This document shows positions 2,200 to 34,351 of a stretch of 34,351 nt of DNA, piece after piece. The stretch comes from a virus. The stretch lies in the IMG/VR virus record IMGVR_UViG_3300042554_000102, positions 1 through 34,351 of that record. One strand, 5' to 3'. Each line of letters begins with the position of its first letter. Within the stretch, counting starts at the first letter, position 1. Below the pieces are notes generated by a model. That model did no database searches, was not told where the DNA came from, and saw only the letters and a list, made by a program, of their open reading frames with translations. The translations under genes and the position numbers were made by a program.

Positions 2200-4695
2200 A
2201 TGGCCACAGGTTCAATTGACAAAGGTTTGTATGCAGCCCCCTTGGGTCTTGAGGATTTTCCCGAGCCCGATCTGGAGATCGAAATCGAAGACCCCGAGGA
2301 AGTCACCATTGGCATAGGCGACGTTGAAATTGAATTGAAGCCGGGCGAAGACACCGACGAAGAGTTTAATGCCAACTTGGCCGAGTTCATGGACGACAGT
2401 GAGTTGCAGTCCCTGGGCGAAGAGTTGGTTGAAGAGTTTGGCAAGGATATCAATGACCGCAAGGACTGGATGCAGACCTATGTGGATGGGCTGAAGCTGC
2501 TGGGCTTGAAGTATGAGGAGCGTACTGAGCCGTGGCAGGGGGCGTGTGGTGTGTTTCACCCCATGCTCACTGAGAGCGTAGTTAGGTTCCAGAGCGAGGG
2601 TATCACCGAAACGTTCCCAGCCGCTGGGCCTGTGAAGACTGTCATTCTGGGTAAGGACACCCCGGAGGTAGAAGAAGCGGCGGCGCGAGTTCGTGAGGAC
2701 ATGAACTATCAGTTGACCGACGTGATGTACGAGTACCGCCCCGAGCACGAGAAGATGCTGTGGAACCTACCCATTGCGGGCTCTGCGTTCAAGAAGGTGT
2801 ACTACGACCCGAGCAAGGGACGCCAGATGGCGGTGTTCATCCCCGCTGAAGATATTGTTGTGCCCTACGGCGCGAGTAACTTGGAGACTGCCGAGCGGGT
2901 CACGCACGTCATGCGCAAGACCAAGAATGAAGTGGCCAAGCTCATGGAGGCTGGGTTCTACATGGACGTGGACCTGGGCGAGCCCACGTATGACTTGGAC
3001 GACATTGAGAAGCAGAAGGCCGAGGAGATGGGCATGTCTGCGATACAAGACGACCGGTATAGGTTCCTCGAGATGCACGTCGATTTGGACTTGGCTGGAT
3101 ATGAAGACGAGGACAAGAAGGGCCGACTGACTGGCATAGCGTTGCCATACGTTGTGACTGTTGAAAAGGGCACGCGCAAGATCGTGGCCATACGGAGAAA
3201 TTGGTATGAAGGAGACAAGCTCCACATTAAGCGCCAGCACTTTGTCCACTACCAGTACATCCCAGGGTTTGGGTTCTACGGGTACGGGCTCATCCACCTC
3301 ATCGGTGGGTACGCCAAGTCTGCCACCATGCTCATCCGTCAGCTTGTCGATGCAGGAACGCTGTCGAACCTCCCAGGAGGTCTCAAATCTCGTGGACTTC
3401 GCATTAAGGGTGACGACACACCGATACAGCCCGGCGAGTTCAGGGACGTAGACGTCCCCAGTGGCTCCATCAGGGACAACATCCTGCCCCTGCCATACAA
3501 AGAGCCAAGCCAAGTGCTGTACCAACTGTTTGACCGCATCGTCCAAGAGGGGCGTTCGTTTGCTTCCAGCGGCGACATGAAGGTCAGCGACATGAGCAGC
3601 CAAGCCCCCGTGGGCACCACACTGGCAATTTTGGAGCGCACTCTTAAAGTGATGGGAGCCGTGCAAGCGCGGATGCACTTCACGATGAAGCAAGAGTTCA
3701 AACTTTTGAAGGTCATCATTGCCGACTACACCCCGGACGAGTATGACTATGAGCCTATAGAGGGTAGCCGCAAGGCCAAGAAGGGTGACTATGAATTGGT
3801 GGACGTGATCCCCGTGAGCGACCCCAACGCCAGCACGATGGCCCAGAAGGTTGTGCAGTATCAGGCGGTCCTCCAGCTTGCTCAGTCAGCCCCACAGTTG
3901 TACAACCTGCCCCTGTTGCACCGTCAGATGATCGAGGTGTTGGGTGTCAAGAATGCAGCCAAGTTGGTGCCGATCGAAGACGATGCCATCCCTGTGGACC
4001 CTGTGCAGGAGAACCAGAATCTGTTGGTTATGAAGCCCGTCAAGGCGTTCATTGAGCAGAACCATGAGGCTCACATTCAGGCGCACATGGCTGCAATCCA
4101 GAATCCGAAAATTCAGCAGATGATGCAGATGAACCCACAGGCGCAGGCGATCATGGCGGCGGCGATGGCCCACGTTAATGAGCACATGGCGTTTGAGTAC
4201 CGCAAACAAATCGAGATGGCTCTTGGCGCACCGTTGCCCAGCGAAGAGCAAAACAAGCACATCCCACCCGAGATTGCCGATCAGATTGCGATAGCCGTAG
4301 CGCAGGCGTCCCAGCAGCTTACACAGCAAGCACAACAGGAAGCCCAGCAACAGCAGGCTCAGCAACAGATGCAAGACCCCATCGTCCAGATGCAGATGCA
4401 GGAACTCCAGATCAAGATGGAGGAGTTGAAGCTCAAACAGCAAAAGCAACAGATCGACGCTGCGGCCAAGGCCGACCAGATGCGTATCGAAGAGTCACGT
4501 ATTGCGTCTCAGAAAGAGATTGCGGCAATGCAAGTCGCGGCTACAGCAGCCGCTGCAAAAGACAAACTCTCGCGGCAAAGTGAGATGGAAGGAGTTCGTA
4601 TAGGCATGGACGCGGCTAAACACCGCGCTCAAATGGCTGTACAGCAAGCGCAACGGGCAGCGCAAAAAACGCCTAGTAAACCCAAGAAGGAGTGA
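2200..4695 (+). CDS. Portal protein (P22/SU10-like)
   Basis: Forms the dodecameric ring at one head vertex through which DNA enters and leaves. At 831 aa it is long, as in P22-like portals. After an acidic N terminus (to about residue 85) comes the portal core, with recognisable stretches such as EPWQGACGVFHPMLTES, RPEHEKMLWNLPIAGSAFKK and PGFGFYGYGLIHLIGG. The last ~190 residues are a Gln/Ala-rich coiled coil (dense QQ runs near residues 700-755) with a basic end, comparable with the barrel extension of P22 portals. ATG at 2200 follows AAGGA. The position after terL supports the call. The C-terminal barrel role is inferred from composition. Confidence 0.9.
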   Translation: MATGSIDKGLYAAPLGLEDFPEPDLEIEIEDPEEVTIGIGDVEIELKPGEDTDEEFNANLAEFMDDSELQSLGEELVEEFGKDINDRKDWMQTYVDGLKLLGLKYEERTEPWQGACGVFHPMLTESVVRFQSEGITETFPAAGPVKTVILGKDTPEVEEAAARVREDMNYQLTDVMYEYRPEHEKMLWNLPIAGSAFKKVYYDPSKGRQMAVFIPAEDIVVPYGASNLETAERVTHVMRKTKNEVAKLMEAGFYMDVDLGEPTYDLDDIEKQKAEEMGMSAIQDDRYRFLEMHVDLDLAGYEDEDKKGRLTGIALPYVVTVEKGTRKIVAIRRNWYEGDKLHIKRQHFVHYQYIPGFGFYGYGLIHLIGGYAKSATMLIRQLVDAGTLSNLPGGLKSRGLRIKGDDTPIQPGEFRDVDVPSGSIRDNILPLPYKEPSQVLYQLFDRIVQEGRSFASSGDMKVSDMSSQAPVGTTLAILERTLKVMGAVQARMHFTMKQEFKLLKVIIADYTPDEYDYEPIEGSRKAKKGDYELVDVIPVSDPNASTMAQKVVQYQAVLQLAQSAPQLYNLPLLHRQMIEVLGVKNAAKLVPIEDDAIPVDPVQENQNLLVMKPVKAFIEQNHEAHIQAHMAAIQNPKIQQMMQMNPQAQAIMAAAMAHVNEHMAFEYRKQIEMALGAPLPSEEQNKHIPPEIADQIAIAVAQASQQLTQQAQQEAQQQQAQQQMQDPIVQMQMQELQIKMEELKLKQQKQQIDAAAKADQMRIEESRIASQKEIAAMQVAATAAAAKDKLSRQSEMEGVRIGMDAAKHRAQMAVQQAQRAAQKTPSKPKKE

Positions 4696-7462: not shown

Positions 7463-8374
7463 ATGGCTATTTCACGCGCACAACTGCTGAAAGAGTTGCT
7501 CCCTGGTCTGAACGCTTTGTTCGGTATGGAGTATTCTCGTTACGGCGAAGAACACAAGGAAATCTACGAGACTGAGACTTCCGAGCGTTCGTTTGAAGAA
7601 GAGACCAAACTGTCTGGATTCTCCGCCGCTCCGGTGAAGAACGAAGGCTCTGCAATTGCTTATGACAATGCGCAGGAAGCTTGGTCAACCCGCTATACGC
7701 ACGAAACCATCGCCTTGGGTTTCTCGATCACTGAAGAAGCGGTCGAAGATAACTTGTACGACAGCTTGTCTGCTCGTTACACCAAGTCGCTGGCTCGCGC
7801 TATGGCTTACACCAAGCAAGTCAAGGCTGCTTCGGTCATTAACAACGGTTTCTCCAACACCTACGCAGGTGGTGATGGCGTTTCCCTGTTCAATGCCAGC
7901 CACCCCTTGATCTCCGGTGGTGTCAACAGCAACACTCCCTCCACTCAAGCTGATTTGAACGAGACTTCTTTGGAAGCCGCCGTTATTCAGATCGCCGCTT
8001 GGACGGATGAGCGTGGTTTGTTGATCGCAGCCAAGCCCAAGAAGATGGTTGTTCCCCCTGCCCTGATGTTCGTGGCCAAGCGTTTGCTGGACACCGAACT
8101 GCGGGTCTCTACTGCTGATAACGATATCAACGCTATCAAGCAGATGGGCGCAATCCCTGAAGGCTACTGTGTCAATCACTTCTTGACTGACACCAATGGT
8201 TGGTACCTGACCACTGACGTGCCCAACGGTATGAAGCACTTTGTCCGCACCCCCTTGCAGAACAGCATGGACGGTGATTTCGACACTGGCAACGTCCGCT
8301 ACAAGGCCCGTGAGCGTTACAGCTTCGGCTGGTCTGATCCCCTCGGTATGTGGGGTTCTTCAGGTTCGACCTGA
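7463..8374 (+). CDS. Major capsid protein (Mu gpT-like, HK97 fold)
   Basis: A 303-aa protein in the size range of Mu gpT-type major head subunits. The N-terminal helix (LLKELLPGLNALFGMEYSRY) is followed by an extended arm with EIYETETSERSFEEE, then the core with LFNASHPL, KMVVPPALMFVAKRLL and a C-terminal FDTGNVRYKARERYSFGW. This layout matches the gpT family of HK97-fold capsids as I know it. AAGGAG at 7450-7455, 7 nt before ATG 7463, is a strong ribosome binding site. Codon choice is biased to CTG/TTG, AAG and GCT/GCC as expected for a highly expressed gene. A strong terminator follows at 8383. No protease gene is seen nearby, so capsid processing is not expected. Confidence 0.88.
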   Translation: MAISRAQLLKELLPGLNALFGMEYSRYGEEHKEIYETETSERSFEEETKLSGFSAAPVKNEGSAIAYDNAQEAWSTRYTHETIALGFSITEEAVEDNLYDSLSARYTKSLARAMAYTKQVKAASVINNGFSNTYAGGDGVSLFNASHPLISGGVNSNTPSTQADLNETSLEAAVIQIAAWTDERGLLIAAKPKKMVVPPALMFVAKRLLDTELRVSTADNDINAIKQMGAIPEGYCVNHFLTDTNGWYLTTDVPNGMKHFVRTPLQNSMDGDFDTGNVRYKARERYSFGWSDPLGMWGSSGST

Positions 8375-12040: not shown

Positions 12041-12270
12041 AAGCGCCGCAGGCTTCCCTTAAAAATTGGACTGACCAAAAATGGAGAACCAAAAGTGGAA
12101 AACCGTCTAGCAAAACAGGTGAGCGATACCTTCCAGAAGCTGCGATCAAAAGTCTCAGCCCTGCTGAGTACGCTGCGACAACGCGGGCAAAGCGAGCAGG
12201 TAAAAAAGCCGGAAAACAATTCGTAGCGCAACCAAAAAGCATTGCGAAGAAAACAGCAGGGTTTAGATAA
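12037..12270 (+). CDS. Small very basic phage protein, TTG start
   Basis: A 77-aa protein (MKAPQASLKNWTDQKWRTKS at its N terminus, TTG read as Met) with RYLPEAAIKSLSPAEYAATT and ending in basic KQFVAQPKSIAKKTAGFR. I recognise this as a recurrent phage family in which SLK-W-QKWRT-SGKPS and the KQF-QPK-IAKKTA end are fixed; its function is unknown. The only longer option is GTG at 11971, which would overlap the previous gene by 70 nt and add unconserved sequence. TTG 12037 overlaps the previous stop (ATTGA), with a G run 8 nt upstream. It is linked to the next gene by TAATG. Confidence 0.66.
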   Translation: MKAPQASLKNWTDQKWRTKSGKPSSKTGERYLPEAAIKSLSPAEYAATTRAKRAGKKAGKQFVAQPKSIAKKTAGFR

Positions 12271-13199
12271 TGGCAGTCACATCTGGCGCAACAACATTCA
12301 ACCTTGACCTGACAGAGTTGGTCGAGGAAGCCTACGAGCGTGCTGGCTCAGAGTTGCGCACGGGTTACGACTTGCGTACAGCGCGGCGCAGCCTCAACAT
12401 CATGTTTGCAGATTGGGCCAGTCGCGGCATCAATATGTGGACGTTTGAGCCGGGCATTATTGACTTGGTTCAAGGGCAAAACACCTACGCACTGCCAGAC
12501 GACACCATTGATCTGCTGGAGCATGTGATTCGCACGGGTGGGAACGTGGCGGCAACGCAAGCTGACTTGACCATCACCCGTATCAGTGTTTCTACCTACG
12601 CTACGATCCCCAACAAAATTCAACAAGCTCGCCCAATTCAAGTGTGGGTGCAGCGGTTCAATGGCCAGAACTCGCCCGTGAGCGCGACTCTGAGCACCAC
12701 AATTACTTCGTCGTCTACTGAGATTGTGTTGAGCAATGCTACGGGTTTACCCGCATCTGGCTTCATTAAAATTGACAGCGAGATCATCAACTACGGGTAC
12801 ATAACAGGCAATACCCTGTATAGCTGCTTCCGTGGCCAACAAAACACCACTGCGGCGGCTCACACTGCTGGGGCAATTGTGTATTGGGCGCAAGTCCCAG
12901 CCGTCACAGTTTGGCCGACTCCCGACAATGCCCAGACGTATCAGTTCGTGTACTGGAGGCTGCGCCGTACCCAAGATGCAGGCGGCGGTGTCAACGTCAT
13001 GGACGTGCCGTTCAGGTTCATCCCCTGTATGGCAGCGGGCTTGTCCTACTACATTGCTGGCAAGATTCCTTCTGGTTTTGAGCGTATTCCCATGCTGAAG
13101 TCTCAATACGACGAAGCATGGCAGATAGCGGCTGGTGAAGACCAAGAGAAAGCGTCTGTTCGCTTTGTGCCGCGACAACAGTTCATTGGAGGTACGTAA
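12270..13199 (+). CDS. Head-to-tail connector protein
   Basis: A 309-aa protein. The N terminus (LDLTELVEEAYERAGSELRT, then TARRSLNIMFADWASRGINMWTFE) is the helical adaptor-type start common in podovirus connector proteins. A beta insertion follows (about residues 130-215, with SSTEIVLSNATGLPASGFI and a DSEIINYGYI motif). The C terminus is helical (PCMAAGLSYYIAGKIP ... QYDEAWQIAAGED). The order and motifs match gp4/gp11-type connectors beneath the portal, which seal packaged DNA and provide the tail attachment ring. A separate SU10-adaptor-like gene lies at 14317, so this one may be a second ring. It is joined to both neighbours by TAATG overlaps. Confidence 0.75.
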   Translation: MAVTSGATTFNLDLTELVEEAYERAGSELRTGYDLRTARRSLNIMFADWASRGINMWTFEPGIIDLVQGQNTYALPDDTIDLLEHVIRTGGNVAATQADLTITRISVSTYATIPNKIQQARPIQVWVQRFNGQNSPVSATLSTTITSSSTEIVLSNATGLPASGFIKIDSEIINYGYITGNTLYSCFRGQQNTTAAAHTAGAIVYWAQVPAVTVWPTPDNAQTYQFVYWRLRRTQDAGGGVNVMDVPFRFIPCMAAGLSYYIAGKIPSGFERIPMLKSQYDEAWQIAAGEDQEKASVRFVPRQQFIGGT

Positions 13200-14119: not shown

Positions 14120-14320
14120 ATGGCAACCTACAAGGTACCGAAAAAAGTAGCCACTGTGGTCGTTGGCGAAGAGCCAGCCAAAGAGACGATGCGTAAAGCA
14201 AACGTGTCTGTGGCCAACACACGTAGCCAAGACTATCCCCCCACCAAGACCAGCGGCATCAAAATCCGTGGTACTGGCGCGGCTACTAAAGGCTTGATGG
14301 CCAGAGGCCCAATGGCATGA
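14120..14320 (+). CDS. 66-aa small conserved phage protein
   Basis: A small protein with a Val/Lys N terminus (MATYKVPKKVATVVVGEEPA) and a conserved-looking end IKIRGTGAATKGLMARGPMA. The start ATG 14120 has GGAGG (14110-14114) 5 nt upstream; a GTG at 14108 in frame lies over that motif and is less likely. The stop overlaps the adaptor gene start in ATGA. The RGTGAA-KG--ARGPMA ending is familiar from aquatic podovirus-like phages and, like the ADGIA tag, is a short basic Gly-rich C-terminal peptide, but the two sequences are not the same. Confidence 0.68.
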   Translation: MATYKVPKKVATVVVGEEPAKETMRKANVSVANTRSQDYPPTKTSGIKIRGTGAATKGLMARGPMA

Positions 14321-15060
14321 ACTACACCGAGTTGTACAACACAATTCAGTCGTACACCGAGAATCAGTTTCCGGATGTATATCTGGCGAGTGGAAGTACT
14401 GTGTCTGCAACGACGCAGATCAATACTTTCATCACGCAGGCTGAACAACGTATATACAACTCGGTTCAGTTCCCCTCGTTGCGTAAAAACCAGTACAGCC
14501 CAATTACTGTAAACAACAAGTACGTGTCTTTACCCAACGACTTCTTGTCTGTGTATTCTTTGGCGTTGGTAACAGGTGTCACGGGCGGAAACTTGGATAC
14601 GGGCACGTTTGAGTACCTGCTCAACAAAGATGTAAACTTCATCCGTCAGGCGTACCCAACGCCAAACGATACGGGCGCACCAAAATACTACGCTTTGTTT
14701 GGCCCAACAATTGTCAGTTCAGCAATCACAAACGAGTTGTCTCTTATTCTTGGCCCTACGCCAGATGCAACGTACTACGTTGAGTTGCACTATTACTATT
14801 ACCCTGAGTCCATCACTACGGTAGCATCTGGCCAAACATGGCTTGGCGATAACTTTGATTCTGTGTTGCTGTACGGGTCTTTGGTAGAAGCCTACACCTT
14901 TATGAAGGGTGAAGTGGACATCATCACTGGGTACAACCAAAAGTACATGGAAGCTCTTGCATTGGCCAAACGTTTGGGCGATGGTCTGGAGCGTAGCGAT
15001 GCGTATCGCAGTGGGCAGTACCGCACACCTGCGTTGCCACAGAATACTGGGGTGCTGTAA
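14317..15060 (+). CDS. Head-tail adaptor protein (SU10 adaptor-like)
   Basis: A 247-aa protein. The N terminus (MNYTELYNTIQSYTENQFP, then QINTFITQAEQRIYNSVQFP and LRKNQ) and the block KYVSLPNDFLSVYSLALV are typical of the phage adaptor family that forms the ring under the portal in SU10-like podoviruses. Later stretches LLNKDVNFIRQAYP, PKYYALFG, LILGPTPDATYYVELHYYYY and VEAYTFMKGE complete the match. The family links portal to nozzle and fibres. It overlaps the previous stop by 4 nt and the next start by one base (TAATG). I am more certain of the family than of the exact ring it forms. Confidence 0.84.
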   Translation: MNYTELYNTIQSYTENQFPDVYLASGSTVSATTQINTFITQAEQRIYNSVQFPSLRKNQYSPITVNNKYVSLPNDFLSVYSLALVTGVTGGNLDTGTFEYLLNKDVNFIRQAYPTPNDTGAPKYYALFGPTIVSSAITNELSLILGPTPDATYYVELHYYYYPESITTVASGQTWLGDNFDSVLLYGSLVEAYTFMKGEVDIITGYNQKYMEALALAKRLGDGLERSDAYRSGQYRTPALPQNTGVL

Positions 15061-24759: not shown

Positions 24760-26820
24760 ATGCCCTTACAGAAACTTGCATTCAGGCCGGGAACCAACCG
24801 AGAAAGCACCAACTACGGCAATGAAGGCGGTTGGTATCAAACCAACAAAGTGCGCTTTCGTTCTGGTATGCCAGAGAAAATTGGTGGTTGGGCCAAAGAC
24901 AACGGCGCTTTATCTACAGTAATTGCTGGTGTTACCACCACAGTTCTTACCCCCTCTACGGGAACCTTGTGGGGCGTGTGTCGTTCCATGTGGAATTGGA
25001 TTACGCTGTCTGGGTACAACCTGTTGAGTTTGGGCACCAACCTCAAATACTATATTCAAAACGGCCCTGGTGGTAACTTCTACGATGTAACGCCACTTCG
25101 GGAAACCACGGGCGCAGGAGCAGCCACTTTTGCTGCCACTACAGGCTCATCAACCATCGTAGTAACTGACTCTGGATATAACGGTCAAACCGGAGACTTT
25201 GTGACCTTCAGTGGTGCAGTTGGTCTTGGTGGCAACGTGACTGCCGCTATCCTCAACGCTGAGTTTCAAATTACATATATCTCCTCAAGCACATACAGCA
25301 TTACAGTGTCTGTTGTAGCCACTGCTGGTGACTCTGGCAATGGCGGCGCTTCTGTTGTGGCAGCTTATCAAATCACAACGGGCGGTGAGGTATATACAGT
25401 TGGCGTTGGTTGGGGTGCGGGTGGTTGGGGCGGTGTAACAACTGGGTATGCGTCTACTGGGTGGGGTTCAGCCGCCCCTGCGGGTCTTGGTATTGGTATT
25501 CAGTTACGCACTTGGAGCCAATCAAACTTTGGTGAAAACCTTGTGTTTAATCCTCGTGGCGGTGCGATGTATTACTGGGATACGAATGCAAACCCAACTA
25601 TTTTTGACCGAGGCGTTGTAATTGCAGCAGGGGCAACTATTAGTGGGTTGACAGTAGATTCCACTTGCCCTTCTATTGCTAATTTTATAACTATATCTGA
25701 CTCATCGCGGTTTGTTATTGCTTTTGGCACTAATGATCCAACAGGCGTATATGCCACTACTGCGCTTGACCCTATGCAAATTCGTTGGTCAGATCAGGAA
25801 AGCATTTGGACTTGGACGCCAGCCATTACCAACCAAGCCGGGGACTATAGACTTAGCCACGGGTCGGCAATCATTACGGCGCAACAAACACGCCAAGAAA
25901 TTTTGGTGTTTACAGACTCTGCTATCTACTCCATGCAGTACCTTGGCCCACCTTACGTGTGGAGCTTCCAAATTTTGGGGGACAACATCTCTATTGCTGG
26001 CCCAAACTCAGTAGCATCTGCCACTAACATCACGTACTGGATGGGGTTGGACCAGTTCTATATGTACTCTGGCCGAGTGGAGATTCTGCCGTCCACACTG
26101 CGTGAATATGTCTTTACCGACATAAACAAAGCACAATCTTTTCAATTTGTGTCTGGTACGAACGAGGGTTACAACGAAGTCTGGTGGCAATACTGCTCTG
26201 CCAATTCCAATGTAATTGACCGTTACGTAATCTACAACTACAAAGACAATGTTTGGTACTACGGTGACTGGAACAACTACGCTGGCGCTAATCAAGGACG
26301 AACGGCGTGGCTGGATAGCGCGTTACGGGCTTCTCCAATGGCTACTGCTTATGGAACTGCTGGCGGAAGTACAAACGCAATACTGGTATATCACGAAGAT
26401 GGCGTTGATGATGGCACGGTCAATCCGTCTGTCCCAATTGTGGCCAACGTGCAGTCTTCTGATTTTGACATTGGGGATGGCAACAACTTTGGTTTTGTAT
26501 GGCGCTTGATTCCTGACTTGACGTTTGATGGTTCTGATGTAAATCAACCAACTGCGTATTTCACGGCCATTCCAAGAACTTTCCCCGGCGCGGCGTATGG
26601 CCCTTCAAACGACCCTGCTGTGACCAGCGCCCAAAACTACCAGAATCAAATCACATACAACATACAGCAATTCACTCAGCAGGTCTACGTGCGGATTCGT
26701 GGGCGTCAAATGGCATTCAGGGTCAGTTCCGGAACTACGGGTAACGCTCTAGACGGGCTGGGGGTGCAGTGGCAGTTGGGCGCTCCTCGTATTGATATTC
26801 GCCCGGACGGCAGACGTTAA
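24760..26820 (+). CDS. Probable tail nozzle protein
   Basis: A 686-aa protein with a conserved N terminus (MPLQKLAFRPGTNRESTNYG, NEGGWYQTNKVRFRSGMPEK, IGGW). This start is typical of the large tail nozzle or tubular protein B-type family in aquatic podovirus-like phages. The body is beta-rich with repeated W/Y/G blocks (GVTTGYASTGWGSAAPAGLG, PMQIRWSDQESIWTWTPAIT, YSMQYLGPPYVWSFQILGDN). This is compatible with a propeller-like fold as in T7 gp12 and P22 gp10 (fold inferred). The location after lysis genes and before fibre-like and ejection genes fits a short-tail tip. ATG 24760 lies 9 nt after the lysozyme stop, and the gene ends with TAATG into the next. Confidence 0.72.
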   Translation: MPLQKLAFRPGTNRESTNYGNEGGWYQTNKVRFRSGMPEKIGGWAKDNGALSTVIAGVTTTVLTPSTGTLWGVCRSMWNWITLSGYNLLSLGTNLKYYIQNGPGGNFYDVTPLRETTGAGAATFAATTGSSTIVVTDSGYNGQTGDFVTFSGAVGLGGNVTAAILNAEFQITYISSSTYSITVSVVATAGDSGNGGASVVAAYQITTGGEVYTVGVGWGAGGWGGVTTGYASTGWGSAAPAGLGIGIQLRTWSQSNFGENLVFNPRGGAMYYWDTNANPTIFDRGVVIAAGATISGLTVDSTCPSIANFITISDSSRFVIAFGTNDPTGVYATTALDPMQIRWSDQESIWTWTPAITNQAGDYRLSHGSAIITAQQTRQEILVFTDSAIYSMQYLGPPYVWSFQILGDNISIAGPNSVASATNITYWMGLDQFYMYSGRVEILPSTLREYVFTDINKAQSFQFVSGTNEGYNEVWWQYCSANSNVIDRYVIYNYKDNVWYYGDWNNYAGANQGRTAWLDSALRASPMATAYGTAGGSTNAILVYHEDGVDDGTVNPSVPIVANVQSSDFDIGDGNNFGFVWRLIPDLTFDGSDVNQPTAYFTAIPRTFPGAAYGPSNDPAVTSAQNYQNQITYNIQQFTQQVYVRIRGRQMAFRVSSGTTGNALDGLGVQWQLGAPRIDIRPDGRR

Positions 26821-27461
26821 TGGCAACAAACGTAATCATCAACCGCTATCGGCCTGTCGTAGCGCCGCGCCTACCCTCGGCTCCAACAGAGTACAACGCT
26901 CAGTACCAAGAGCAGTTCATGAACATCTTGCGGTTGTACTTCAACCAGCTTGATAACTTGACGGGTACTTTGATTGGGGATAACGGGGGACGGTTCTTGC
27001 GTCTTCCGTATGGTTCTTTTTCGGACTCAACGACCCAAACAGCGGCAGCAACAGGAACGGCATACGCGGTCACGTTTAACACGACTGAGTACAGCAACGG
27101 GGTGGCTGTCAGCACGCCCACATCAAGGATTTTGATTACTGATCCGGGGTACTACAACTTCCAGTTTTCTCTTCAACTTGATAAATCGTCTGGAGCTACA
27201 GGGCATACGTACATATGGCCCCGAATAAATGGCACCAACGTACCCCGTTCTGCTAGTGAAGTTGCTATACAAGGAACCGCAGCGGAAAACATTGCAGCTT
27301 GGAACTTTGTGCTGGAGATGCAGGCTGGGCAATACTTTGAATTGATGTGGAGCGTGGACGACACCAACATCCAGATTAAAGCTGTTGCAGCGGCGGCTCC
27401 AGTCCCGGCTATCCCTTCGGCGATCTTAACTGTGACATTTGTCTCGGCGCTCTCAACATGA
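26820..27461 (+). CDS. Virion protein with a probable jelly-roll C-terminal domain
   Basis: A 213-aa protein. The N-terminal helix (YNAQYQEQFMNILRLYFNQL) after RPVVAPRLPSAPTEYN looks like a virion attachment part. From about residue 62 a beta domain follows (YGSFSDSTTQTAAATGTAYA, DPGYYNFQFSLQLDKSSGAT, GQYFELMWSVDDTNIQIKAV). The pattern of DPGYY-FQFS-QL and ATGHTYIWPRINGTNV is that of C1q/TNF-like jelly rolls in phage head or tail spikes. I recognise the family from aquatic phages; its exact place is unknown. It is joined to the nozzle gene by TAATG. Confidence 0.68.
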   Translation: MATNVIINRYRPVVAPRLPSAPTEYNAQYQEQFMNILRLYFNQLDNLTGTLIGDNGGRFLRLPYGSFSDSTTQTAAATGTAYAVTFNTTEYSNGVAVSTPTSRILITDPGYYNFQFSLQLDKSSGATGHTYIWPRINGTNVPRSASEVAIQGTAAENIAAWNFVLEMQAGQYFELMWSVDDTNIQIKAVAAAAPVPAIPSAILTVTFVSALST

Positions 27462-28656: not shown

Positions 28657-29099
28657 CACCACAAGGGAAACTTGAATGGTTTGGGGGCAATCAGGATGCC
28701 CTGAACATGTATCGTGCGTTTGTAGACTTGGCCCACATTTGGGATGACCTTGTTGATAAGGACAACCCCGTCTCCGCAGATAAAATCAATCAAGCTTTCT
28801 TAACGTGTCTGGTGTACTTGCCTGCTAATCCGTTTTACCGGGCAATTCAAGAACAGATAATGCCAATGTGGTTGGTGGTGGTTTCTGCGTATGAGACGGC
28901 AAACCATTTTGAAAAGATCAAAGACGCTCATGGGATTGAGATTGCCCACGGGTTGCGACATGCCTCGGGGAACATACTAGCCTATGCGGTGCATGTTTGT
29001 GTGGGCCCAGAAAAGGCTAAAGAAGTCCTTCCCGAAATGTGGAAGAACATATTTTTTGAGCGGTTTGACGATTACCGCAAGGAGCATCTAGATGTTTAA
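28653..29099 (+). CDS. Helical DDLVD-containing protein, function unknown
   Basis: A 148-aa, nearly all-helical protein. MYRAFVDLAHIWDDLVDKDN and PVSADKINQAFLTCLVYLPA show an Asp-rich WDDLVDKD motif. The rest includes MPMWLVVVSAYETANHFEKI, IEIAHGLRHASGNILAYAVH and FFERFDDYRKE. The DDLVD on a helix recalls the Asp-rich motif of all-helical isoprenoid-type enzymes, but no second DDxxD-like motif is seen, so enzyme activity is not claimed. The frequency of such genes beside ejection proteins suggests an assembly or DNA-ejection partner. It overlaps the previous gene by 4 nt and the next by 8 nt. Confidence 0.68.
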   Translation: MTPQGKLEWFGGNQDALNMYRAFVDLAHIWDDLVDKDNPVSADKINQAFLTCLVYLPANPFYRAIQEQIMPMWLVVVSAYETANHFEKIKDAHGIEIAHGLRHASGNILAYAVHVCVGPEKAKEVLPEMWKNIFFERFDDYRKEHLDV

Positions 29100-31542
29100 G
29101 CTGTCCAGCCTGTTGAATTTTTTACTTGGCCCACGTTTGTCTATCAGCATGGGTGGGGGCAACAGCACTCCTGCAAACACAACCCAGACTACAACGCAAG
29201 AGTTGCCTGAGTGGGCACGGGGGTACGCCAAAGATACACTGGCTAAAACGTCGGCATTGACGGACGTTAACCAGAATCCGTATAAGACCTACGATGCAAA
29301 CCGCATTGCTGGGTTTTCGCCGATGCAGCAACAGTCAATGACGGGTGCTCAAAATATGACAACCGCGCCGCAGTTGGATACTGCGTCTGGCATAGCGGGG
29401 ATTGCTGGCTCTAGGGCTATAGGTTCTCAGTACAACCCAAATCAATTTGGCGCACAGCAAGTTGGCACGCAAGACTACACGGGGCAGAACGTCAGCCAGT
29501 ACATGAACCCCTACATGCAGAATGTAGTGGACATCCAACAGCGCGAAGCCCAGCGCCAAGCAGACATCATGGGGACTCAGCGTGCTGGACAGGCCGTTCG
29601 CTCTGGCGCTTTTGGTGGTTCCCGTGCAGGCTTGATGGAAGCTGAAGCCGCTCGTAACTTGGCAACCCAGAAGGGTGACATTCAAGCCCAAGGGCAAAAC
29701 GCTGCGTTTCAAAACGCTCAGCAGCAATTCAATACCCAGCAGCAACGGGACTTGCAAGCGCAGATGGCCAATCAACAGCAGGGTATGACTGCTCAACAGC
29801 TTGGAGAACAATCTCGTCAGTTTGGTGCCAACTACGGAATGCAAGGGTTGCAGACTGGTTTGCAAGCTGCGGGGCAGTTAGGGCAACTGGGTGGTCAACG
29901 ATTCCAGCAAGGTATGGATATCAACAAGCTGCAAAACACCTATGGCGCACAGCAGCAACAGTTAGAACAACAAGGCTTGAGCCAGTCGTATCAAGACTTT
30001 TTGAACCAGCAAAACTATCCGTACAAACAATTGGGCTTTATGTCTGACATTTTGCGCGGTACGCCTACGGGTTCGTCATCCTCCGTGAACATGTATCAAG
30101 CTCAGCCCGGCGCACTACAAACAGCGACAGGGTTGGGTCTCGGTGCTTATGGCGTTAGCCAGTTGATGAAAGCTGGCGGCGGTTCGGTGTATGAGTATGC
30201 TGATGGCGGCTCAGTCACGAGTGATTACAACACTGCCGACATTATTGACACGCTGAGCGACCAGCAATTGCAAGCAGCCCGGCAAAACGCACAGACCCGC
30301 AAAGATATGGGCACGCTTGAACTCATTGACGAGGAACTAGCACAAAGGGCTTCCGATCGCGGCGGCATGTCTGCTGCGTTTAATCAGCTTCCCCCCAATG
30401 CACAAGAGGATATGTACAAGGCTGCGAATGGCGGCATTGTGGCTTTTGCTGACGGCGGGTCTTATAGGAAGCAAGCCGCAGAGGACCGTGAAACTTTAAA
30501 AGGGTTGTCGTTTGCTGCCCCAACACCCGAAGATTACGAAAAGGGCGTGGCCGCTCGGTTGCCGTTTATTGAGAAGATGTATGGTGCGGATACTTTGTCC
30601 CCGTACTTGGCCGAGACTAAGGCTGAGCGGGAGAAGTTAAAGAGCGGTAAGGCTATGGACGAAGCCAAAGGTCTTGGCGCGTTGATGGCTGCGGCTGAAC
30701 TATTTGCTGCCCCCAACATGAACCAAGGCGCGGCGGGCGCGATAAAAGCGTTTACTGGCGAGGTCGCCCGAGTCAAGAAAGATAACAAAGAAGCTGAGCG
30801 TCTGCTGCGTTCTTCTGAAATTCAGTTGGCCACTGCCGCACAAGCTCGTAAAGAAGGTCTGATTGGTAAAGCCATGACTGCGCAAGACAAAGCCGACGGC
30901 CAATTTATGGAAGCCAAGAAGCTTGAAGCTGGCGTGAAAGAAAAAGTTGCCCAACTGTCTGGCGGTCTGGCTCAAGCTGAGTTGTCTGGTGAGTCTCAGG
31001 TGCGTGCTGCGGGTATATCTGCAAACAAACCCACGGACTTGGCCCGTCAAACGGACATTGTGTATCAGGGGATGCTCGAAGCTGGCGCACCCGCCAACAA
31101 ACAGACGATGGCCAAAGCTGCTGCTCAAGCCGCAAGCGATCTTGGTCGGTATTCAGGCACTGATCGTGCTGCTGCCGCAATGGCGGGCGCAACTCAGAAA
31201 TCGGTCAAAGAAGCCAAAGAAGCATGGGCCAACAGTGTCTTGACGGATAAAACGCTTAGAAAGCAATACGAAACTTTGCGGAAAGAAGATCCTACGCGGG
31301 CCGAGGCATTCCGAGACGATTGGATTGAGCGGGAGATGAGTGTTGGTAAACCTACCCCTCAAGGTGCCCCGGCTCAAGGAGCCCCAACACCAGCGCCAGT
31401 ACGGGGAGCACCTGCAACGCAAGGAGCCGCCCCAACTGCTGTACCACCACTTAATACATGGATGAGTGCAGCTAAGAAAGCAAACCCCAATGTTTCTGAC
31501 GCGGAGTTGGCCGCGTACTACAATCAAAAATACGGCAAATAA
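29092..31542 (+). CDS. Large Gln-rich internal virion or ejection protein
   Basis: An 816-aa protein. The N terminus (residues 1-40) includes PARLS-free MFKLSSLLNFLLGPRLSISM, then conserved PEWARGYAKDTLAKTSAL and FSPMQQQSMTGAQNM. Residues ~130-330 are Gln/Ala/Gly-rich helix with MNPYMQNVVDIQQREAQRQA. Then GGSVYEYADGGSVTSDY, a helical block (DTLSDQQLQAARQNAQTRKD ... TLELIDEELAQRASDRGGMS) and GGIVAFADGGSYRKQ. The C-terminal half is a charged helical region with a Pro/Ala/Gln linker and a small end domain (KKANPNVSDAELAAYYNQKY). The composition fits an inner-core protein delivered into the host. AAGGAG lies 7 nt ahead of ATG 29092. Confidence 0.75.
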   Translation: MFKLSSLLNFLLGPRLSISMGGGNSTPANTTQTTTQELPEWARGYAKDTLAKTSALTDVNQNPYKTYDANRIAGFSPMQQQSMTGAQNMTTAPQLDTASGIAGIAGSRAIGSQYNPNQFGAQQVGTQDYTGQNVSQYMNPYMQNVVDIQQREAQRQADIMGTQRAGQAVRSGAFGGSRAGLMEAEAARNLATQKGDIQAQGQNAAFQNAQQQFNTQQQRDLQAQMANQQQGMTAQQLGEQSRQFGANYGMQGLQTGLQAAGQLGQLGGQRFQQGMDINKLQNTYGAQQQQLEQQGLSQSYQDFLNQQNYPYKQLGFMSDILRGTPTGSSSSVNMYQAQPGALQTATGLGLGAYGVSQLMKAGGGSVYEYADGGSVTSDYNTADIIDTLSDQQLQAARQNAQTRKDMGTLELIDEELAQRASDRGGMSAAFNQLPPNAQEDMYKAANGGIVAFADGGSYRKQAAEDRETLKGLSFAAPTPEDYEKGVAARLPFIEKMYGADTLSPYLAETKAEREKLKSGKAMDEAKGLGALMAAAELFAAPNMNQGAAGAIKAFTGEVARVKKDNKEAERLLRSSEIQLATAAQARKEGLIGKAMTAQDKADGQFMEAKKLEAGVKEKVAQLSGGLAQAELSGESQVRAAGISANKPTDLARQTDIVYQGMLEAGAPANKQTMAKAAAQAASDLGRYSGTDRAAAAMAGATQKSVKEAKEAWANSVLTDKTLRKQYETLRKEDPTRAEAFRDDWIEREMSVGKPTPQGAPAQGAPTPAPVRGAPATQGAAPTAVPPLNTWMSAAKKANPNVSDAELAAYYNQKYGK

Positions 31543-31553
31543 AGGGGTTCGGC

Positions 31554-34351
31554 ATGGCCATCATTGATCCGTTTGAGGTTCAAACGCCACAACGGAGAGG
31601 CATTGTTGACCCGTTTGAGGCGCAGCCTGCCCCACAGATTGTTGACCCGTTTGCCGAAGGGAAACTTTCGCAGGAAACCACATCAAACCCGTTCATGGGA
31701 ATACTGGGTCGCGCCGCATCTTTGGCTGGCGCAGGCGTTGGGGCCGTGGCAGAAGTTGCCGAGAGGCTTGGCGACAAGTTGGAATTGGCTGTGCCGTTGT
31801 CTGGCATAAGCGAAGAAGACATAAAGAACAAGAAGCAGCTTCAGCCGCTGTTTGATTGGGCCAAGTCGCTCAAAGATTTTGACGAGAGCATTGGCTATCA
31901 ACCCAGCACGCAACTTAAAGAGTTGGCAAGCAACCCCCTCAAAGCTGTACCGTTCATTGCCGAGCGCGTGCTGACTTCTTCTCCAGATATGGTGGCAGCG
32001 GTAGGGGTTTTACCTGCCTACATCATGTCGCGCACCAAAGAAATTCTGGATGAGCGCGTTAAGAACGACGAAAAGACACTCGATGAAGCCACTGTCGGAG
32101 ACGTAACTGCTGCGGTTACTGCCGCTGTTGTAGAAGGCACGCTTGAACGCTTTGCCTCCAAAGGACTTTTGAAGGCTACCCCTGGTAAGACGGGCGCTGG
32201 CCGCATCGGGAAAGAGACCGCTACTCAAGCTGGTACTGAGGTTGTAGAAGAAGAAGCAGCGTATCTTGGCGAAGCTGCTGGAACCAAGAAAGGTCTCAGT
32301 GCAGAAGAGGCATTGAATCGTGGCTTGGAAGCTGCAATCGTTGGCGGTGGTCTCGGCGCTGGTGTGCAAGGCACAAAAGAGTACCTCAACCGCAAACCTG
32401 AAGCCGCCCCAGAGGCACCTGCACAAACAGTTGCCGGGCAACCAACGACTGCCCCTAACGTAGAAGAAGCTGCTGCTGCGCCAACGCCCGGTGTGCCACA
32501 AATTGACCCTGCGCGTGTGGAGCAACTGAAAACCACGTTTATAGATATGGGTTTAACGCCCGCCGAGGCTGAAATCAACGCCGTGGAAGCGGCTACTTTA
32601 GAGGCAGAAGACGATGCGGCTTACGAAGGAACAGCGCAAGGAGCAGAAGATGTTGCAGGAGTTGACACTACAGCAGGTGGAGCAGGCGCTCCAGTGGTTG
32701 GACAGCCCGGTGCAGTCAGCGCCCCCGCAGGAGTTGGAGCAGTTGAGCCAAGTGGAGTGGTACCTGCTAGACAAGATGTTGCAGGAACTCCTGTTGGAGA
32801 AGCGGTTCAGCAGCCTGCATTAACAGAGGCCGAAACCAAAACTTCCGGTGCGGTACTCAACGAAGCTTGGACAAAAAATTTTTTAGCTCGCCAAGAGTTG
32901 CTTGATGAAGCTGATGCGCTTGGAAAAGAATCAGAAAAAATTTCTGACGAGCTTTATAGTTTGCCCTTATCACAACAGTACGACTCGCCGTTGCGTCAAA
33001 AACTGGATGATCTTAACGCGCAACACGACAAAATTATTGCCCAAGTTGATGCACTTGACACCGCAAGAAAACAACTCACGACCGCTCCCGCAGTCGAAGA
33101 AGGCATCCCGCCTGTCGAAGAACAAGCTGCGCTGCAAGAAGAACTTGCCGCAGAACAAGCCAAGACGGACGTTGACTACGCCGAGGAAGCTCCCATTCCT
33201 GATTCGGTTGCCAACGTGGTTGGCGATCTGGCTGACCTTGCGCCTGAGATTGAGGCCGAGACTCAAGCTGAAACTGAAGCTGCACCCAAAGGCAAACGAG
33301 GACCGAAGGGTGCTCGGTTAACACCAGAACAAAAAGCTGCTTCGGACGAACGCCGCCAGCAACAGACCAAAAACTGGAAGTCCAATAAGAAGGCCGTGGA
33401 TGCTGCGGATGCGGCGCTCACTGACGCACTGACGCCCTTGGACCCTAGCGGCTACGACAGTCTTGAAGCTGCACAGGAAGCGGTTGAGAGCCAACGGATC
33501 GGCAAAATTCAAGCAGTCAAATCATTGATGCTGCTGGGTCGTACGCTTAAAGGTACTGAGCTAGGCGCTAGAGTTGAAACACTGCTTAAAAATCCGGCAA
33601 TCACCGCCAAGGAACTTGCTGATATCAAAGCGGGTATTGCTGCGCAAGTGTCCAAATCTGCTGCTCAAGTCAAAACAGGCCGAGCCGACACCAGATTTAG
33701 CGGCATGACCACGGGTCAGCAAGCACTGCGGCACGTCATCAAGACAGGTAATCCATTCCAGAAGTTCTTGGCCCAGCGCCTGCTGCCGTTTGTCAAAGAC
33801 GTTCGCTTCCAAGTCGTTGAGGAAAATGACCCATTACCCGCACAGATTACCGAGGGCGGCGCTGTCGAAGACTGGGATGCGTCCCGTGGCTTGTTCTTGC
33901 GTGTTGTTTCCACTGGCGAACGCTTCGTATTTGTACGGGGTGCAACTGGAGGCCCAAGCCAAGGCGTAAATAACGTCACTGTGCTGCACGAGATGTTGCA
34001 CGCCGCCCTGAACAAGAAAATGGACATGGCGGATTGGGCTCTCCGCAGTGGGTACGATCGCACTTCCGATTTGGCCACGGCGTTCAAGTCGCTGCAAGAA
34101 ACAATACGCCTGACGCAAGAGCGCATGGCCGACATGCAAGAAGCTGGCACGCTGCCAGAGTCTATGTATCAACTTGTTGACTCAGGGATATTCACCGACG
34201 CTCGTGAGTTTGTTGCGTATGCAATGTCAGACCCCGCCTTCCAAAAGTTTCTGATGGACACGCCGGGGGTGTTGAAGCAGTCGTTGTTCACTCGCTTTGT
34301 CAACAATGTGCGGCAGTTCTTCAACATGGGGCCAATGCACACGAGCGCCCT
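31554..34351 (+). CDS. Giant ejection-type protein with HEMLH zinc-protease motif, 3' partial
   Basis: An open frame without stop from ATG 31554 to the right edge, at least 932 aa; the end is outside. Residues 5-33 contain three DPF repeats (IIDPF, IVDPF, IVDPF). The N-terminal ~270 residues are hydrophobic/helical (SSPDMVAAVGVLPAYIMSRT, AAIVGGGLGAGVQG). A Pro/Ala/Gln/Glu-rich linker and a coiled coil (about 430-560) follow. Near residues 760-900 is a protease-like domain: VLHEMLHAALNKK with HEMLH at 812-816, and DAREFVAYAMSDPAFQKFL with E885 as possible third zinc ligand. GGGGTTC precedes ATG. Such proteins are injected with phage DNA or process virion parts; the exact role is inferred. Confidence 0.72.
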   Translation, partial: MAIIDPFEVQTPQRRGIVDPFEAQPAPQIVDPFAEGKLSQETTSNPFMGILGRAASLAGAGVGAVAEVAERLGDKLELAVPLSGISEEDIKNKKQLQPLFDWAKSLKDFDESIGYQPSTQLKELASNPLKAVPFIAERVLTSSPDMVAAVGVLPAYIMSRTKEILDERVKNDEKTLDEATVGDVTAAVTAAVVEGTLERFASKGLLKATPGKTGAGRIGKETATQAGTEVVEEEAAYLGEAAGTKKGLSAEEALNRGLEAAIVGGGLGAGVQGTKEYLNRKPEAAPEAPAQTVAGQPTTAPNVEEAAAAPTPGVPQIDPARVEQLKTTFIDMGLTPAEAEINAVEAATLEAEDDAAYEGTAQGAEDVAGVDTTAGGAGAPVVGQPGAVSAPAGVGAVEPSGVVPARQDVAGTPVGEAVQQPALTEAETKTSGAVLNEAWTKNFLARQELLDEADALGKESEKISDELYSLPLSQQYDSPLRQKLDDLNAQHDKIIAQVDALDTARKQLTTAPAVEEGIPPVEEQAALQEELAAEQAKTDVDYAEEAPIPDSVANVVGDLADLAPEIEAETQAETEAAPKGKRGPKGARLTPEQKAASDERRQQQTKNWKSNKKAVDAADAALTDALTPLDPSGYDSLEAAQEAVESQRIGKIQAVKSLMLLGRTLKGTELGARVETLLKNPAITAKELADIKAGIAAQVSKSAAQVKTGRADTRFSGMTTGQQALRHVIKTGNPFQKFLAQRLLPFVKDVRFQVVEENDPLPAQITEGGAVEDWDASRGLFLRVVSTGERFVFVRGATGGPSQGVNNVTVLHEMLHAALNKKMDMADWALRSGYDRTSDLATAFKSLQETIRLTQERMADMQEAGTLPESMYQLVDSGIFTDAREFVAYAMSDPAFQKFLMDTPGVLKQSLFTRFVNNVRQFFNMGPMHTSA

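What the first reader, a model, noticed from the sequence alone, without database searches (positions are those of the whole stretch)
31554..34351. Giant ejection-type protein with HEMLH metalloprotease motif running off the window
A stop-free frame of at least 932 codons has N-terminal DPF triplicate, hydrophobic helical region, long linker/coiled coil and a zinc-protease-like part (HEMLH 812-816, E885). Many podoviruses use a transglycosylase in their ejected core proteins; a protease in this place would be a different way to cross or modify the envelope, or to disarm host proteins after injection, as proposed for phage polyvalent proteins.
Basis: partly seen in the sequence, partly recalled or inferred. 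Interest (0 to 1): 0.62.

Follow-up and report, generated by a model that had tools for sequence, protein, structure and literature searches.

The report
Giant ejected protease with docking tags
The truncated gene encodes a giant protein that a phage probably packs in its head and injects with its DNA; it carries a protease-like domain already known from such proteins, and its three-fold start is one half of a previously unreported (as far as I could find) plug-and-socket code that matches the end of the neighbouring ejection protein in many phages.

Summary
The frame is open for 932 codons, with three DPF repeats, HEMLH at 812-816 and E885, and it runs off the contig. Relatives are 1,918-3,164 aa, with LPD39 and PLxRFG domains downstream. 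Residues ~712-932 are a zincin. H812, E813, H816 and E885 stay invariant in relatives found without using the motif. The AlphaFold model (pLDDT 84) matches the PhiM1 tetrameric ejection protein, the N4 virion RNA polymerase C1 domain and anthrax lethal factor. Zincins in ejected polyvalent proteins were described in 2017, so this part is a new member of a known kind.

The less expected result concerns the 'DPF triplicate'. It is a swappable N-terminal tag of at least 17 types, normally in 2-3 copies. Its type is matched by the last ~30 residues of the ejection protein upstream (window: ...KKANPNVSDAELAAYYNQKYGK). In 78 junctions the nearest C-terminus predicts the motif type 70 of 74 times (chance 4). 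Thirty of 30 contigs with the DPF-type C-terminus carry DPF-like repeats on the next gene, some on apparently unrelated proteins. I read this as a docking pair between consecutive ejection proteins. Binding itself is inferred, not shown.

The parts
31554..34351 (+). Giant ejection-type protein, first 932 codons; the gene is cut by the contig end (relatives 1,918-3,164 aa)
31560..31652 (+). N-terminal tag: three copies of [IV][IV]DPF (residues 3-7, 17-21, 29-33), the proposed peptide half of the docking pair
31444..31539 (+). C-terminal mini-domain of the upstream ejection protein (PPLNTWMSAAKKANPNVSDAELAAYYNQKYGK), the proposed socket half, DPF type
29092..31542 (+). Upstream ejection protein, 816 aa (phrog_4287 'DNA ejection protein', E 1.3e-13)
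33687..34349 (+). Zincin (metallopeptidase-like) domain, residues ~712-932
33987..34001 (+). HEMLH zinc-binding/catalytic motif, residues 812-816
34206..34208 (+). E885, predicted third zinc ligand

Best explanation
The gene encodes a giant internal virion protein that is packed in the head and ejected with the DNA. Its N-terminal repeats (three DPF copies here) probably bind the folded C-terminal mini-domains of the ejection protein encoded just upstream. That would hold the giant in the internal core and may help reassemble the two proteins into the envelope-crossing tunnel. The pair is a swappable cognate docking module: phages exchange both halves together while both protein bodies stay the same. 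Downstream of a linker, residues ~712-932 form a zincin (H812, H816 and E885 as zinc ligands, E813 as base) that most likely acts after ejection, trimming the giant or its ejectosome partner (slightly favoured) or a host protein. The LPD39 and PLxRFG regions seen in relatives would follow beyond the contig end. Shown here: the zincin fold by prediction, invariance of the active site, and matching of the C- and N-terminal types. Inferred: virion location, physical binding, proteolysis, its timing and its substrate.
For: Zincin: model pLDDT 83.6, pTM 0.80. VIA-align Z 9.4 to PhiM1 ejection protein 8vb2, 8.6 to N4 vRNAP 9pnt, 8.4 to anthrax lethal factor, 7.3 to PPEP-1. Profile against PDB sequences: E 2.9e-18 to internal virion protein 9sfn. 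44/44 unique domains keep HExxH. Virion role: LPD39, PLxRFG, next to an ejection protein. Docking: nearest C-terminus has the same motif type 70/74 against 4.1 by chance, 62/72 with dissimilar bodies only. In related pairs identity drops at the last ~40 residues of one protein and the first ~40 of the next, in genes otherwise up to 100% identical (L065/L067 DNA). 30/30 DPF-type C-termini with a readable next gene are followed by DPF-like repeats. PW-type C-termini are followed by PWxx(x)[YFW] in unrelated phages, also when inserted genes push the partner 1.0-2.6 kb away. The own motif recurs elsewhere in the giant, 8/63 against 3/945 for foreign motifs (P 2e-8), including its far C-terminus.
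Against: No binding or proteolysis was measured. The AlphaFold run on a read-through of a PW-type junction folded the mini-domain (pLDDT 80-90) but left the motifs at ~54, so docking is unconfirmed. The two tags are neighbours in DNA, so joint swapping by one recombination tract is expected from linkage alone; adjacency is escaped only by the C-terminal copies and the separated genes. Kosakonia phage Kc259 has one NPFAQFA but no clear partner C-terminus, and phikF77 shows no tag. Foldseek alone found no PDB match at E below 0.2, and a Z of 8-9 is modest.
Confidence: 0.75

Rival explanations
1. The terminal tags are matched only because they sit next to each other and are exchanged on one short recombination tract; they do not bind each other. 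The N-terminal repeats might instead bind the capsid, the portal or a host protein.
For: The two halves are 0-12 bases apart in most genomes and the swap tract in L065/L067 is only ~200 bp.
Against: Almost no mismatched junction was seen between diverged backbones, although recombination inside the tract would make some. The own-type motif recurs at the far C-terminus ~7 kb away (L015, L019, L022, L023). Pairs hold when separated by 1.0-2.6 kb of inserted genes. In the mini-domain/peptide types the polarity looks reversed (YEY, DGRI), as expected of binding partners.
Confidence: 0.2
2. The zincin is a host-directed effector that cleaves a bacterial protein after injection, such as an envelope or defence protein.
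For: Structural neighbours include secreted effector proteases and PPEP-1; Iyer et al. list host targeting as one option (PMC5512222).
Against: No target is known. The domain occurs in structural ejection proteins of phages infecting very different hosts, which fits a general task better.
Confidence: 0.3
3. The domain degrades peptidoglycan, as its annotation in related phages ('endolysin domain') and the PhiM1 paper suggest.
For: phrog_342 and the PhiM1 authors label the corresponding protein or region endolysin/exotransglycosidase-like.
Against: The region carries an invariant HExxH...E site, and its best structural neighbours after the phage proteins are peptide-cleaving zincins, not glycosidases. 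A zinc peptidase acting on peptidoglycan cross-links is not excluded.
Confidence: 0.12
4. The zincin fold is catalytically dead and purely structural in the core.
For: N4 vRNAP is packaged unprocessed, and the region that includes its zincin is needed for encapsidation (PMC5512222).
Against: All four catalytic positions are invariant while mean column identity is ~50%, which is hard to explain without catalysis.
Confidence: 0.1

Closest known systems
Zincin-like metallopeptidase (MPTase) domains of phage polyvalent proteins, incl. N4 virion RNA polymerase aa 2130-2448 (Iyer et al. 2017, PMC5512222)
   Same: HExxH helix, later helix with a glutamate, small sheet; large multidomain phage protein; LPD39 in relatives
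   Different: No RNA polymerase or other known effector domain was detected; a PLxRFG region follows; sequence too far for any Pfam or PHROG family to claim the window protein itself
Tetrameric ejection protein of PhiM1 (gp48, PDB 8vb2) and phiKMV-like internal protein (9sfn; phikF77 gp41)
   Same: Homologous zincin (E 0.0016 and 2.9e-18), virion-internal, gene placed after another ejection protein in phikF77
   Different: No detectable sequence similarity outside the zincin; no N-terminal repeats seen in phikF77; PhiM1 authors call the region endolysin-like
T7 gp15/gp16 contact (gp16-N 'molecular tape' on gp15 C-termini, PMC8954989)
   Same: N-terminal part of the later ejection protein contacts the C-terminal part of the earlier one
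   Different: In the phages here the contact would be a short exchangeable tag of many types, with 2-3 copies
Docking domains of NRPS/PKS megasynthases (recalled from general knowledge; PMC7496407 seen only as title and abstract start)
   Same: C-terminus of one protein recognises the N-terminus of the next by small swappable cognate elements
   Different: Different proteins and folds, viral ejection machine, repeated motif copies; analogy, not homology

Membership tests
Polyvalent-protein zincin (MPTase) | HExxH with a downstream glutamate on a second helix | tested here: met
   H812, E813, H816, E885; 44/44 HExxH with masked profile; helices 96-121 and 172-181 of the model carry them
Polyvalent-protein zincin (MPTase) | Zincin fold | tested here: met
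   AlphaFold model pLDDT 83.6; VIA Z 7-9 to several zincins
Polyvalent-protein zincin (MPTase) | Peptidase activity | not testable with these tools
   needs an assay
PLxRFG / tail-700 (NF032893) and LPD39 giant proteins | Domain match above the curated cut-off | tested here: inconclusive
   Met in full-length relatives L002 (79% identical), L012, L019; the window gene ends before this region
gp16-like tetrameric ejection protein (PhiM1 gp48, phiKMV gp37) | Homologous zincin | tested here: met
   9sfn E 2.9e-18, 8vb2 E 0.0016
gp16-like tetrameric ejection protein (PhiM1 gp48, phiKMV gp37) | Homology over the rest of the protein | tested here: inconclusive
   No PDB hit with the downstream region or with full-length L002; absence of sequence similarity does not exclude a shared fold
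gp16-like tetrameric ejection protein (PhiM1 gp48, phiKMV gp37) | Present in the virion core as a tetramer | not testable with these tools
   uncultured phage
Cognate docking pair between ejection proteins (proposed here) | C-terminal type predicts N-terminal motif type across unrelated backbones | tested here: met
Cognate docking pair between ejection proteins (proposed here) | Direct binding of the two tags | tested here: inconclusive
   AlphaFold on the read-through junction: mini-domain confident, motifs not

The most novel reading that the evidence does not exclude
Podovirus-like phages use a polymorphic docking code: a C-terminal mini-domain on one ejection protein and 2-3 copies of a cognate short motif on the next (or the reverse) hold the internal core together, and the code lets phages swap whole ejected effectors or add extra cargo. 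In T5S1 the tagged partner is a lysozyme, in L204 a protein with an inorganic-pyrophosphatase domain, and in L204-L206 an inserted zinc-ribbon-like gene also carries the matching KPWE-W motif.
Probability: 0.6. Interest if true: 0.8.

Novelty: new variant of a known kind. Interest (0 to 1): 0.62.

Why it matters
How internal proteins are chosen for packaging, stacked in the core and reassembled in the envelope is poorly understood. A sequence-readable code at the protein ends would make it testable: it predicts partners, explains why ejected giants swap so freely, and suggests a tag for loading chosen proteins into phage heads. The zincin result suggests that a domain called 'endolysin-like' in a solved ejectosome is a metallopeptidase, a second simple test.

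Tried and rejected
Zincin cleavage of the repeated motifs: rejected as unlikely, because the motif type changes between giants whose bodies are nearly identical (L065/L067). A second HExxH in some relatives (HEQYH, HELYH) is not conserved (NHDMYQ in L002) and was dismissed. The weak Pfam hit to JetA (E 0.27) is treated as chance. The 70-domain conservation table is partly circular, since those loci were found by LHExLHAA, so it is not used as proof. Overall partial correlation of tag similarities was weak (0.13, above all permutations), probably because most pairs of short tags are simply unrelated; nearest-neighbour counts are the informative test. Neighbour-gene similarity by motif type was confounded by relatedness. 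The control junction one gene upstream is better conserved (50/65% against 22/29%), but some control genes were probably mis-called. Genome contigs gave one weak hit (Zoogloea MAG), so the host is unknown. The DPF-type C-terminus has no match in the annotated phage collection. A first AlphaFold alignment with separate N-terminal rows was misaligned and replaced. One query with wrong coordinates, one with stops and one too short failed. Literature searches found no description of such tags in the open-access papers held.

Full report
1. Observation. The frame at 31554 opens with ATG and has no stop to the end of the record; the window is the complete 34,351-base virus record, so the gene is cut. 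The neighbourhood is a virion block: large terminase (667-2190), portal (2200-4695), major capsid protein (7463-8374), adaptor-like proteins and tail fibres, then an ejection protein (29092-31542, phrog_4287) immediately upstream of the giant.

2. Full length. A viral scan gave 22 relatives, some complete. Full-length versions are about 1,900-3,200 aa. The closest, L002 (79% identical over the shared part), is 2,022 aa with LPD39 (E 2.8e-11) and the PLxRFG/tail-700 domain (E 2.9e-91); PHROGs link the C-terminal region to DarB-like giants. So the window protein is very probably a polyvalent, ejected giant with more domains past the contig end.

3. The zincin. In relatives found through unrelated peptides, HExxH and a later glutamate are invariant down to cultured phage phikF77. 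In a set found through the PLxRFG region, 57 of 59 giants with enough upstream sequence have the domain, and 44 of 44 unique copies keep HExxH; the glutamate is kept in all 55 copies examined, a count limited to those with HExxH. The AlphaFold model has a three-strand sheet, the HExxH helix and the glutamate helix. VIA-align puts PhiM1 8vb2 (Z 9.4, 133 residues, 4.9 A), N4 vRNAP C1 (Z 8.6, 187 residues, 4.7 A), anthrax lethal factor (Z 8.4, 151 residues, 4.0 A) and PPEP-1 (Z 7.3, 142 residues, 3.6 A) on top. These Z values are modest, but they are backed by sequence profiles to 9sfn and 8vb2. The viral structure library gives internal virion proteins, N4-type polymerases and polyvalent proteins.

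4. What is known of it. Iyer et al. 2017 named zincins the commonest domain of polyvalent proteins, placed one at aa 2130-2448 of the N4 polymerase, and proposed self-processing, processing after entry, or host targets (PMC5512222). The N4 structure paper notes HExxH in its C1 domain (PMC12633501). The PhiM1 paper calls the matching region of its tetrameric ejection protein (Asp268-Asp528) endolysin/exotransglycosidase-like and does not mention a protease (PMC11440229). The zincin in the window is therefore a new member of a known kind; the PhiM1 label probably needs revision.

5. The triplicate. Comparing N-termini showed that the repeat is a swappable cassette: DPF, GPWxxY, WWxxAP, NPFxxF, FFDxFD, WSVVSETP, DGWETI, FTSFTP, FVPLSE, WTPPSDA and others. 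It is typical of this gene and not of other genes in the loci (14 of 894 ORF N-termini score as high, several of them giant fragments). Near-identical bodies can carry different types; in L065/L067 DNA homology breaks from ~127 bp before the giant's start to ~90 bp after it.

6. The matching half. The last ~30 residues of the upstream protein follow the type. The nearest C-terminus has the same motif type in 70 of 74 cases against 4.1 by chance, and in 62 of 72 when only dissimilar backbones may be chosen; C-terminal similarity is 0.52 within and 0.11 between types. In 13 related pairs of different type, identity generally falls in the last ~40 residues of the first protein and the first ~40 or more of the second; some pairs differ more widely. 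For two types (YEY, DGRI) the roles look reversed, with a mini-domain on the giant and a short peptide at the upstream C-terminus.

7. Out-of-sample tests. Annotated phages found through one half mostly show the other half, on unrelated proteins: EBPR podovirus 2, a Bradyrhizobium phage, Aeromonas BUCT695, T5S1 (partner is a lysozyme), RHph_I3_11, LKA5, DSL-LC05, RHph_N65 and phiM5 (phiM5 is weaker). Kc259 does not fit clearly, and the annotated start of the F116 partner was unusable. A viral scan through a PW-type junction found loci of which those matched only by the C-terminus all have a PW-type partner gene; in L204-L206 it lies 1.0-2.6 kb away behind inserted genes. A scan through the window's own DPF-type C-terminus gave 31 loci; all 30 with a readable next gene begin with DPF-like repeats.

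8. Linkage or binding? Adjacent tags can be swapped together without binding. Against linkage alone: almost no mismatches across diverged backbones, pairs kept at a distance, and motif copies of the right type elsewhere in the giant, including its far end (8/63 against 3/945, P 2e-8). AlphaFold on a read-through junction folded the mini-domain but not a complex. Binding is therefore an inference, which I hold at about 0.75.

9. Mechanism. The simplest model: the upstream protein's mini-domains hold the giant's repeats in the packed core. Two to three motifs per giant would fit a partner in excess, as in PhiM1 where an octamer sits under a tetramer, and the place of contact recalls T7, where gp16-N stitches the gp15 C-termini (PMC8954989). 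After ejection the zincin would act on the giant, its partner or a host protein; substrate and timing are unknown.

10. Verdict. Observation confirmed; interpretation partly supported. The zincin alone would score about 0.3. The docking code raises the interest to 0.62.

Noticed in passing
L204 5406, L205 5493, L206 6943 (minus strand): A zinc-ribbon-like protein encoded between the two tagged genes also carries the matching KPWE-W motif; it could be extra cargo docked to the ejection protein.
   Followed up: partly
L192:8066-8656 (phage T5S1): A phage lysozyme carries PW-type tags and follows a protein with the matching C-terminus.
   Followed up: partly
PDB 8vb2 (PhiM1 gp48); L024:4879-8892 (phikF77 gp41, phrog_342): Region or protein labelled endolysin-like has a HExxH...E zincin signature; likely misannotation.
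   Followed up: partly
L015, L019, L022, L023, C-terminal end of the giant: The same motif type as at the N-terminus recurs at the extreme C-terminus.
   Followed up: yes
L166, L167: Two PLxRFG giants lack this zincin; L166 has a different HExxH stretch (MVHEASH).
   Followed up: no
L049:6307-15003: A larger relative has a possible HATPase-like segment (E 4e-5, just below the curated cut-off).
   Followed up: no
window 26820-27461: Weak match to BclA C-terminal/C1q-like domain (E 0.001, below cut-off), probably a fibre head.
   Followed up: no
window 12270-13199 and 14317-15060: Two SU10-type adaptor-like proteins in one genome.
   Followed up: no
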